53,984 nucleotides of DNA from Candidatus Nitrosocaldus tengchongensis (GTDB lineage Archaea > Thermoproteota > Nitrososphaeria > Nitrososphaerales > Nitrosocaldaceae). The stretch is from assembly GCA_013538675.1 (NCBI GenBank), contig JACAFJ010000007.1:1-53984 (forward strand). Reading direction: 5' to 3'. Of the stretch, positions 21,056 to 25,621 are shown piece by piece (positions within the stretch are counted from its first letter, which is position 1; each line of letters starts with the position of its first letter). Position numbers and translations under genes: made by a program. The notes below the pieces were generated by a model. That model made no database searches, was not told where the DNA came from, and saw only the letters and a program-made list of their open reading frames with translations.

Positions 21056-22153
21056 CTACTGCTGCTCTACTACTCCTCTTCTGCTGATACTCCTCGTGTA
21101 AAGGATGAATGAGCCTAGAGCTGCACCTATAAGCCCTATGCTGCCTATAACTACCTCTGGCACAACCATGAATCCAAGTACTGTAAAGTCTAGGCTATGG
21201 TAGCCATTTGTGCCATTATACATCTGACCCATTGGATGCCCACTGCATGCAAGTATGTCTAGATGTGTACCTGCTGGAAGATGTGGTACTGTTAGGGTTG
21301 CGTTAGCCTGTAGTTTGCCTGCTGTTGTTAGCCTCCCAGTACTTGGATCTACTGTACCTTCTACTAGCGTTGCTTCAACATCCTGATGGCTATCAACAAG
21401 GTTACCTGTGGAGTCTATCCATGCTAACCTTATAAGTCTCCAGCCACCAGGTCTGTCACCTTCGTTAAGATACACGTTCACTGTAACATTTATTGGTTCA
21501 CCTGGAAGCCCTTGGGTTGCAGATGGAATTATCTCTATCTCTCTATCTACCTCTGTATGGCATATGGATACTTGATACTTTGCAACTGTGTAGTTCATAT
21601 CCATTGAACCACCACTAGGCATGGGGTGTGCAAAGCATGCTACGAGCCATATCTCTTCTCCTGGAAGGAGGTTATCTACAGTTATGTTTGGTACAGGGAA
21701 CTGGTTCACAGTTCTAGTGCCTATGCCTCCTGACCATGTTGTTATCAGTGCATTGTTTGGCGTTGGTCTTGGGGTTACAGGAGTGAGGCTAGAATCATCT
21801 GCAGGGTTGTACCATATCCCGCCAGTTGCATCTGCTATCCAACTATCTGTTGATGGTCTATACCATGCGAATGTAACGTAACTGTACATGAACTCGAATA
21901 TGTTCTGTGGTAGTGCTCCTCCAGATTTGTTGTAGTCTGCAGTAACTGTAGCATTTGTCTTATCTCCAGGGAGCCCGCCTGCAGGATGCAGATCTAGGCT
22001 TATGAATACGTCATTGAATGTTCCACAGATATTACCTAGTTCGTCGCTAGGACTTACATCGTGGTCATAACCATTATGATCCGTATCTGCAAATACACCT
22101 GCAAATCCTCCAAGCATGAGTACTGCTATCATTGCTAGAGCCTTGGACTGCAT
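21056..22153 (-). CDS. Secreted two-repeat protein with C-x-x-H-x-M motifs and membrane anchor
   Basis: From ATG 22153 the product has 365 residues; a GTTTTAATAG box about 24 bases upstream favours it over an ATG 48 bases earlier. A signal peptide is followed by two copies of a domain. Each begins near a lone Cys (GNICGTF, VSICHTE), has a G-LPG-turn (GGLPGDKTN, QGLPGEPIN) and a W-rich strand, and ends in ACFAHPMP or ACSGHPMG. The end, VVPEVVIGSIGLIGAALGSF then RSISRR, resembles a PEF-CTERM anchor. It is divergent from the large paralog. The C-x-x-H-x-M residues could bind copper, or the paired cysteines could form a disulfide. Confidence 0.72.
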   Translation of the reverse strand: MQSKALAMIAVLMLGGFAGVFADTDHNGYDHDVSPSDELGNICGTFNDVFISLDLHPAGGLPGDKTNATVTADYNKSGGALPQNIFEFMYSYVTFAWYRPSTDSWIADATGGIWYNPADDSSLTPVTPRPTPNNALITTWSGGIGTRTVNQFPVPNITVDNLLPGEEIWLVACFAHPMPSGGSMDMNYTVAKYQVSICHTEVDREIEIIPSATQGLPGEPINVTVNVYLNEGDRPGGWRLIRLAWIDSTGNLVDSHQDVEATLVEGTVDPSTGRLTTAGKLQANATLTVPHLPAGTHLDILACSGHPMGQMYNGTNGYHSLDFTVLGFMVVPEVVIGSIGLIGAALGSFILYTRSISRRGVVEQQ

Positions 22154-22399
22154 TACATCTCTTATCACACCAAATCTATTAAAACATTCTGGTACAATCA
22201 TGAAAAATATGAAATAATTCTATAACATAGTTCTAGTACAAGATTCTAATAGATAACTATAAGAGATAGCGCATAAACATATTTAATTTATATCTTCTAT
22301 TCTAATATCAGTTCAAGAATCAAGAGATAATAACATGATTTACAGTTTCGATAGTTGTACCATAATAGATTATATTTATTAGCTGGAGAAGAGAATGTT

Positions 22400-25300: not shown

Positions 25301-25621
25301 ATAACAGTTACCGATGCCCCTACAAGTAAGGCAAGTATAACAACCATAGCCCCAGATCTAACATTCAAGAAGAGAAGTTACAACATGGAGGAGGTTGAAG
25401 GCAATATGGCATCTATAGCAAGCATAACGTTAGATAAGGCGGGAGAGTGGATAGTGCTAGCAGAGTTTGGTGATGGCAATATGGCATCAATAAAGACAAA
25501 TGTTGCATTTAACGTTGTGCCTGAAGGGATATTAGGGGCAATAGCAATTATATCTAGCTCGCTTACTACTGCAGTACTCTATCTGATCATAAGGGGTCGC
25601 ATAACTGCTGATAGGTTATAG
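22400..25621 (+). CDS. Large surface protein with four C-x-x-H-x-M-type repeats and polyglutamine tract
   Basis: There is no good ATG. GTG 22400 is preferred: it is in frame, begins right before the signal-anchor (VAIIIVTVVIVAAVLGSIML), and TTATATTTATT lies about 25 bases upstream. A Glu/Lys/Val-rich acidic spacer follows. Repeat units end in ACLVEK (degenerate), VCFVHPMPGGYMDM, ACFMHPMPGGYMEM and ACFSHPWAGPTGYMDM. The last three cysteines are spaced exactly 165 codons apart. Segments such as DDLYTRVAEAMLDRG and DDLDGIVRNMVYAID form a second repeated module. The C-terminus VVPEGILGAIAIISSSL then RGR is PEF-CTERM-like. It is presumably a cell-surface protein; the ligand is unknown. Confidence 0.75.
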   Translation: MIFKFSSKQGVAIIIVTVVIVAAVLGSIMLLQAKDTNNNKADVTTTPSRETEHEEKGVSEDISIEERVEANVKIKEVEEEEEEREEVTQPSGEEESSKPAVAEESISCIPLEGSTSRVSKSLILSLSLNKSYGTPNTSVQTVASLSSIDESAIFTITHVKFAWFSLQDGSKQLSEWEESRVSWDYNDDGYVVGEARAYMKVPDVPANTDVIITACLVEKSARSYKELGFTTTTFRVTAEEKIISYYRVDSIDDLYTRVAEAMLDRGIRFDEERVEALLDKVTGKAVDGDENRAEEGIRDSSSKITVREGSYLFIDAAEGSLYSIGCVASSTVVKDGDTLGCFFISLDDSEYNLAIDVVYIDGRTYPVYDDVVDSEGFAYTFTHVVDGSNEGKVYVIARVDDERVILEVGLDIVRALDIRTLCTPWVDREVKILLEPIYGLPGSDVRASIGIRILPEDESMRWMFEYITVTWLDEANRTIPTSWRYAGDETTSRWKEPLKIINWDDGDGDIYTGSTEIMLKVPEADAGSMLKLLVCFVHPMPGGYMDMVNSYTTFYVGSELPKEEQEKQQQQQQQQQQQQQQQQQQQQPGIIPCSIHPGGDRQINFSIDPRSGTSGSSVRAMLTVRVNPDDYGEPFDPTRHWRWMYEDVKFFWLDANNNIIDSIGPLKVIHWSTSDPLYGEGVYNLTVPRSQSSNAKIVACFMHPMPGGYMEMTYRIENFTILDATSTGGGQQGQQPPQQPPQQQEEGRIEPINFDIGKICGEYTGDREFISMSLKTDADSITASIRVAFDSSDPNLEIWKFMYSYIKFRWYNYSTGAYASEWIPSSPVQLIREWSNEDGKVVGNAEYKVALPDASPGSRLGLIACFSHPWAGPTGYMDMNYTVAGYLMPSRYHTVTNIDDLDGIVRNMVYAIDADKADSIANTINKIEPRLGRDARYLLIDVSKGSVYLLACLLKDVPVMIGDSVQCITVTDAPTSKASITTIAPDLTFKKRSYNMEEVEGNMASIASITLDKAGEWIVLAEFGDGNMASIKTNVAFNVVPEGILGAIAIISSSLTTAVLYLIIRGRITADRL
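24101..24160 (+). repeat. CAA/CAG tract encoding 20 consecutive glutamines
   Basis: Twenty codons, all CAA or CAG, lie between two surface repeats. The mixed codons make slippage less likely than a pure CAG run. Long polyglutamine is rare in archaea; here it probably acts as a flexible linker. Reading frames on the opposite strand (poly-Leu, poly-Cys) are artefacts. Confidence 0.95.

What the first reader, a model, noticed from the sequence alone, without database searches (positions are those of the whole stretch)
21056..25621. Repeated surface domain ending in C-x-x-H-x-M, in two divergent genes
Five clear units (two in the 365-residue protein, three in the large protein, plus one degenerate) end in ACF-x-HPMP-type motifs. 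Three of them are spaced exactly 165 codons apart. Each unit also has an early lone cysteine. The pattern is unlike the domains I know. Possible roles are a copper site (Cys, His and Met are typical cupredoxin ligands, and these organisms depend on copper) or a disulfide-stabilised adhesion fold. All proteins have PEF-CTERM-like anchors.
Basis: partly seen in the sequence, partly recalled or inferred. Interest (0 to 1): 0.75.

Follow-up and report, generated by a model that had tools for sequence, protein, structure and literature searches.

The report
Copper-linked Ig-like surface domain repeats
Two divergently transcribed surface proteins of a hot-spring ammonia-oxidising archaeon are built from an undescribed immunoglobulin-like domain held by a conserved cysteine pair; four of its six copies keep a His/Met cluster and the genes share a promoter element with the cell's copper-protein cluster, so they look like copper-capturing surface proteins rather than blue-copper proteins.

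Summary
The repeats are real. Protein A (381 codons, probably 365 residues) has two copies and protein B (1088) four of one ~140-residue domain, D, found only in Nitrosocaldus and absent from Pfam and NCBIfam. A confident AlphaFold model (pLDDT 89) is an Ig-like sandwich, not a cupredoxin. Both cysteines are invariant in 31/31 domains and every cysteine of mature A and B pairs off, so they are most likely a disulfide. C-x-x-H-x-M is not the family signature: the fifth copy reads HPW, the sixth EKS, paralogs HPHG or ESPN.

The copper idea survives in another form. In the four full copies (A1, B2, B3, B4; 25-38% identity between copies) only 11 columns are invariant, among them one His and three Met; site Met are kept in 15/15 cases across four species, other Met in 2/17. 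A, B and neighbouring gene C carry, 33-38 nt before their starts, an element matching the published Nitrososphaera viennensis copper-limitation motif, which recurs genome-wide beside CopC-CopD.

Best explanation: surface-anchored, copper-regulated proteins whose Ig-like domains present His/Met Cu(I)-type sites, chemically like CusF on another fold. Metal binding and expression are untested.

The parts
21056..22201 (-). gene A, ORF of 381 codons, two D domains, signal peptide and C-terminal anchor; likely start codon at 22153 (Met17)
21563..22039 (-). D domain A1 (full His/Met set, HPM and MDM)
21155..21571 (-). D domain A2 (HPM, His at position 131, no MxM)
22355..25621 (+). gene B, ORF of 1088 codons; likely start GTG near 22400; four D and two E domains, N- and C-terminal membrane segments
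22709..23116 (+). D domain B1 (degenerate site, Cys pair kept)
23126..23650 (+). E domain 1 of B (Cys 341/356)
23651..24076 (+). D domain B2 (modelled copy; full His/Met set)
24164..24571 (+). D domain B3 (full His/Met set)
24665..25072 (+). D domain B4 (HPW instead of HPM, otherwise full set)
25067..25519 (+). E domain 2 of B (Cys 967/982)
22347..22362 (+). copper-type promoter element before B, exact, TTCGATAGTTGTACCA
22190..22205 (-). copper-type promoter element 36 nt before the likely start of A, one mismatch
22234..22249 (-). second copy of the element upstream of A, one mismatch, conserved core TGTACTAGA
20918..20933 (-). copper-type promoter element 33 nt before C, exact
19457..20884 (-). 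gene C, exported anchored protein of an AOA-wide family with predicted N-terminal His; same element upstream
18300..19325 (-). ZnuA-type metal-binding protein (context)
17529..18290 (-). ABC transporter ATPase, ZnuC-type (context)
16582..17493 (-). ABC transporter permease, ZnuB-type, His-rich tail (context)
16081..16518 (+). NikR-type regulator (context)
19340..19422 (.). two dyads before ZnuA (19340-19369 and 19395-19422), candidate NikR-type operators

Best explanation
A and B are cell-surface proteins made of tandem copies of one Ig-like domain (D). SHOWN: six homologous units; a confident Ig-like model; a Cys pair invariant in 31/31 domains. INFERRED with high confidence: the pair is a disulfide tying the segment before strand A to the outer side of strand F. 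SHOWN: in A1, B2, B3 and B4 (numbering of domain B2) Met49, His124, Met131 and Met133 are invariant and position 126 is Met or Trp. INFERRED: these lie at one end of the sandwich, His124 opposite Met131 on the F-G hairpin and Met49 next to strand C, and form a Cu(I)-type site of His plus an MxM pair, chemically like CusF. SHOWN: B and gene C carry exactly, and A with one mismatch, 33-38 nt before their starts, an element that also marks the gene after CopC-CopD, the next gene, and an operon with a winged-helix regulator. INFERRED: it is the copper-limitation element reported in N. viennensis, so A, B and C are made when copper is short and hold or concentrate copper at the cell surface for import, alongside CopC-CopD.
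For: Fold: pLDDT 89, pTM 0.84; PDB matches are Ig-like. Disulfide: Cys 31/31 while His is 25/31 and the Met is confined to some groups; 12 Cys in B (4 D pairs, 2 E pairs) and 4 in mature A conserved in four species. Site: 11 invariant columns in 16 sequences of 25-38% inter-copy identity, three of them Met, while no Leu/Ile/Val column is invariant; site Met kept in 15/15 cases across species against 2/17 for other Met of A and B, Fisher P = 2e-7; the same columns can be picked from the window species alone, so this test is not circular. Regulation: element matches published TTCSGSMTTTGWACYANT at 11 positions with the same spacing (PMC7785015); 29 exact hits in five genomes, 19 of them 33-38 nt before starts of the same five gene families where about 0.4% of random positions would qualify; CopC and CopD confirmed by Pfam. 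In G007, another family of the order, a one-mismatch copy lies 36 nt before the C-type gene that follows CopC-CopD. Neighbour C has a predicted N-terminal His and invariant His residues.
Against: No metal binding, expression or localisation was measured. Foldseek TM-scores are modest. The motif was reported in a different genus, three of its 18 positions differ here, and raw hit counts are only modestly above expectation (6 against 3.1 in this genome, 29 against 18.6 in five), so the case rests on position and conservation. The adjacent transporter is Zn/Mn-type next to a NikR-type gene and has different dyads, so the locus may serve another metal. A, B and most of C were deleted in G001 and G004, so they are dispensable there. 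No VKOR, Thioredoxin_4 or DsbD_TM gene was found in the draft genome. Paralogs S and T carry no element upstream.
Confidence: 0.5

Rival explanations
1. D is a disulfide-stabilised Ig-like structural or adhesion domain without metal. His124, Met49, Met131 and Met133 pack the open end of the sandwich, and A and B serve attachment or cell-envelope architecture; their promoter element is shared with copper genes because the envelope is remodelled under copper shortage.
For: Ig-like fold and Cys pair; tandem repeats with Q/P-rich linkers and membrane anchors typical of adhesins; two copies (B1 in B, T elsewhere) have lost the site; A and B dispensable in two species.
Against: Invariant Met in three columns while aliphatic core columns vary freely; other Met in the same proteins are poorly conserved (2/17); promoter element shared with CopC-CopD neighbours.
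Confidence: 0.3
2. A, B and C are surface metal scavengers that feed the adjacent ZnuABC-type importer with zinc, manganese or nickel, as PhtD is paired with AdcAII in Streptococcus pneumoniae.
For: Conserved adjacency with ZnuABC and NikR in four species, and C-type genes beside NikR/ZnuABC in Nitrosopumilaceae; PhtD/AdcAII precedent (PMC3842936, abstract only).
Against: Met-rich site suits Cu(I) rather than Zn, Mn or Ni; ZnuA has its own dyads and lacks the A/B/C element; ZnuABC persists where A, B and C are lost.
Confidence: 0.12
3. Each D unit is a short-loop type 1 cupredoxin with Cys, His and Met of the C-x-x-H-x-M motif as copper ligands.
For: C-x-x-H-P-x-M of amicyanin is one residue longer than C-x-x-H-P-M (own knowledge); beta-sandwich fold.
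Against: No cupredoxin profile or fold match; no second His in B2 and B4; Met replaced by Trp in B4; Cys invariant where His/Met are absent and paired with the early Cys.
Confidence: 0.02

Closest known systems
CusF, periplasmic Cu(I)/Ag(I) chaperone of E. coli
   Same: His, an MxM pair and a Trp as the metal site: H36, M47, M49, W44 (PMC6235853); here H124, M131-x-M133 and W126 in B4 (M126 in the others)
   Different: CusF is a small soluble beta-barrel of an efflux system (own knowledge); D is an Ig-like sandwich in membrane-anchored multidomain proteins, and its metal binding is untested
Ig-like and E-set surface domains (Big_3_5, alpha-2-macroglobulin domains, V-set)
   Same: Ig-like sandwich with Trp on strand C
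   Different: the Cys pair joins the segment before strand A to strand F, not B to F; no significant Pfam family
Type 1 cupredoxins with short loops (amicyanin)
   Same: beta-sandwich, Cys-His-Met-like loop near the C-terminal end of the domain
   Different: no second His in B2 and B4, Cys in a conserved pair, no profile or fold match
Copper-limitation regulon with CopC/D of Nitrososphaera viennensis
   Same: promoter element at the same distance; in Nitrosocaldus it marks genes next to CopC-CopD
   Different: A and B are not in the CopC-CopD cluster and are confined to Nitrosocaldus in the genomes searched
Streptococcal PhtD with AdcAII (surface zinc scavenger and importer)
   Same: surface protein encoded beside a ZnuA-type binding protein
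   Different: different fold and residues; regulation here points to copper and the importer persists without A/B/C

Membership tests
Type 1 cupredoxin | match to the blue-copper profile or fold | tested here: not met
   PF00127 hits seven places in the genome, none in this locus; Pfam scan of 16 domains; 50 best PDB fold matches
Type 1 cupredoxin | two His and one Cys, usually a Met, as copper ligands | tested here: not met
   B2 and B4 have one His only; Cys kept where His/Met are lost
Type 1 cupredoxin | blue absorption of the Cu(II) form | not testable with these tools
   needs purified protein
Ig-like fold (superfamily level) | two-sheet antiparallel sandwich | tested here: met
   AlphaFold pLDDT 89, pTM 0.84; Foldseek matches to Ig-like domains, TM up to 0.65
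Ig-like fold (superfamily level) | match to a curated Ig-like Pfam family | tested here: not met
   best Big_3_5, E 0.012, 3 of 16 members, below cut-off
CusF | His, MxM and Trp brought together on adjacent strands | tested here: inconclusive
   residues present and invariant in four copies, Trp only in B4; adjacency inferred from DSSP register
CusF | small beta-barrel fold | tested here: not met
   Ig-like model
CusF | binds Cu(I)/Ag(I) | not testable with these tools
   needs titration
AOA copper-limitation regulon | element TTCSGSMTTTGWACYANT upstream at about -35 to -70 | tested here: met
   core TTC-N5-YTGTACYA exact before B and C, one mismatch before A, 33-38 nt before starts; three of the 18 published positions differ
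AOA copper-limitation regulon | induction under copper limitation | not testable with these tools
   no expression data for Nitrosocaldus here
PEFG/PEF-CTERM anchored proteins | match to the C-terminal sorting profile | tested here: not met
   A and B no hit; C 16.1 bits against a cut-off of 25

The most novel reading that the evidence does not exclude
A genus-specific Ig-like domain family that carries a CusF-type His/Met Cu(I) site on a new scaffold, arrayed several times on surface-anchored proteins switched on by copper shortage: a dedicated surface copper-capture layer in an ammonia oxidiser.
Probability: 0.4. Interest if true: 0.8.

Novelty: new variant of a known kind. Interest (0 to 1): 0.62.

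Why it matters
Ammonia-oxidising archaea rely heavily on copper enzymes and how they gather copper is poorly known; most motif-bearing copper-responsive genes of N. viennensis encode proteins of unknown function (PMC7785015). This locus offers a concrete, testable set: a new domain with a predicted Cu(I) site, a neighbour with a predicted N-terminal His, and a promoter element tying both to CopC-CopD. It also extends that element from Nitrososphaera to Nitrosocaldus and points to a winged-helix operon that carries it as a candidate regulator.

Tried and rejected
Cupredoxin reading: tested by profile, fold and His count, rejected. 165-codon periodicity: not kept in relatives, rejected as accidental. 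SoxZ resemblance around HPM (E 0.17): not significant and in another strand order. Searches of 200 genomes of the phylum and 400 of the class found no clear member outside the genus; one weak hit (G295, E 0.006) left as noise. The profile search of genome contigs failed for lack of conserved stretches; the single-protein search gave three named loci. Viral fold search gave only generic Ig-like matches. The model of gene C (pLDDT 82, pTM 0.62) gave only multi-Ig matches without functional content. VKOR, Thioredoxin_4 and DsbD_TM were not found in the draft genome, so the route of disulfide formation is unknown. The copper element was not found upstream of the single-domain paralogs S and T. An exact copy in G007 (L161:4597) was first read as a CopC-CopD promoter site but overlaps the start of the divergent gene, so I rely instead on the site 36 nt before the C-type gene.

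Full report
What was claimed and what is there. The window is contig 54 of a 1.24 Mb draft genome; named relatives with the same genes are Candidatus Nitrosocaldus schleperae, an uncultured Nitrososphaerales bin and Nitrosocaldus sp. SKYG19. Gene A (21056-22201, -) and gene B (22355-25621, +) are divergently transcribed. A holds two and B four copies of one domain, called D here. Homology was tested by leaving out each paralog group and searching it with a profile of the others: groups in A and B score E 4e-9 to 7e-29, with the best of about 2000 shuffled controls per group at 10.2 bits. The 165-codon spacing of the last three motif cysteines is correct but is 158-191 in relatives.

Extent of the family. 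Besides A and B, the genus has single-domain paralogs S and T of about 200 residues. Searches of 200 genomes of the phylum and 400 of the class found clear members only in this genus. No Pfam or NCBIfam model matches A, and B, S and T have only sub-threshold hits.

Fold. The B2 copy, modelled with all 31 domains as alignment, gives pLDDT 89 and pTM 0.84: strands at 15-21, 30-39, helix 41-50, strands 52-58, two short ones, 97-106, 115-126 (F) and 129-142 (G). PDB matches are Ig-like domains with low identity and modest TM-scores; no cupredoxin is among the 50 best.

Cysteines. Cys8 and Cys121 are invariant in 31/31 domains. B1 and T have lost the His but keep both Cys. In four species B has the same 12 Cys: four D pairs and two pairs in a second repeated domain, E; mature A has four, two per domain. 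All 16 are conserved across species. This points to disulfides rather than a metal thiolate. The model allows it (Cys8 precedes strand A, Cys121 is on strand F), but the sulfur distance could not be measured.

His and Met. On strand F residues 116, 118, 120 and 122 are mostly hydrophobic and so face the core; His124 and Met126 follow in the same phase and Cys121 in the other. With a two-residue F-G turn His124 lies opposite Met131, and Met133 is on the same face. This is inference from DSSP and alignment. Among A1, B2, B3 and B4 in four species (16 sequences, 25-38% identity between copies) only 11 columns are invariant: C8, M49, W57, W89, P108, C121, F122, H124, P125, M131, M133; position 126 is Met or Trp. 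No aliphatic column is invariant. Site Met are conserved across species in 15 of 15 cases against 2 of 17 for the other Met of A and B (Fisher P 2e-7); the same columns would be chosen from the window species alone. A2, S and T have His at position 131 instead of Met, and B1 has lost the set. The pattern resembles the Cu(I) site of CusF (H36, M47, M49, W44; PMC6235853) on another fold.

Neighbourhood. NikR-type gene, ZnuB, ZnuC, ZnuA, gene C, A and B keep their order in three further species. In two others (G001, G004) ZnuABC and NikR remain, A is gone, and remnants of the ends of C and B abut, which fits one deletion. The sister genus G006 has ZnuABC and NikR without A/B/C. Gene C belongs to a family spread over ammonia-oxidising archaea: by eye a signal-peptidase site leaves an N-terminal His in most members, and H219, E221 and H261 (mature numbering) are invariant. 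In Nitrosopumilaceae-type genomes a C-type gene lies beside NikR and ZnuABC as well.

Regulation. Aligning upstream regions of A, B and C from four species showed a shared block TTC-N5-YTGTACYA. A study of copper limitation in N. viennensis reports TTCSGSMTTTGWACYANT at -35 to -70 of copper-responsive genes, including a CopC/D gene (PMC7785015). Exact hits of the core: 6 in this genome (3.1 expected; the pattern read backwards gives 3) and 29 in five genomes (18.6 expected). By position, 19 of the 29 lie 33-38 nt before the start codons of five gene families: C, B, a paralog of C directly after a CopC-CopD fusion gene, the gene after it, and an operon of a small membrane protein with a winged-helix regulator (two starts re-read at the downstream ATG). 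About 0.4% of random positions would qualify. A has a one-mismatch site at 36 nt. In G007, another family of the order, a one-mismatch site lies 36 nt before the C-type gene that follows CopC-CopD. ZnuA instead has two dyads conserved in the genus, the nearer one also in the sister genus, plausible NikR-type operators. So A, B and C are probably co-regulated with copper genes and not with the adjacent transporter.

Verdict. The cupredoxin reading is rejected, the disulfide reading supported, and a copper role supported indirectly through a His/Met cluster and a regulatory link. Both copper arguments are inferences from sequence; neither binding nor induction has been measured.

Noticed in passing
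19457-20884 (-): Gene C: AOA-wide exported family with a predicted mature N-terminal His (HGxG) and invariant His219, Glu221 and His261; possibly a histidine-brace-type metal site. A paralog directly follows CopC-CopD.
   Followed up: partly
L113:8532-9078 and L114:7760-8342: Abutting remnants of the ends of genes B and C in two species, the scar of what looks like one deletion that removed A.
   Followed up: yes
23126-23650 and 25067-25519 (+): A second repeated domain (E) in B with a closely spaced Cys pair, alternating with D.
   Followed up: partly
L152:2941-4525 (G000:C28): Operon of a DUF7471-like membrane protein, a winged-helix HTH protein and a methyltransferase with the copper-type element 35 nt before its start in four species; candidate copper regulator.
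   Followed up: partly
19340-19369 and 19395-19422: Two dyads before ZnuA, candidate NikR-type operators; the first is also present in the sister genus.
   Followed up: partly
L025 (G001:C1:1571651-1571959): The single-domain paralog S is broken in G001, one of the species that lost A, B and C.
   Followed up: no
16582-17493 (-): The ZnuB-type permease ends in a long His-rich tail.
   Followed up: no
mature N-terminus of A, about 22000-22080 (-): Asp/His-rich stretch (DTDHNGYDHD) after the signal peptide, His-rich in all four species.
   Followed up: no
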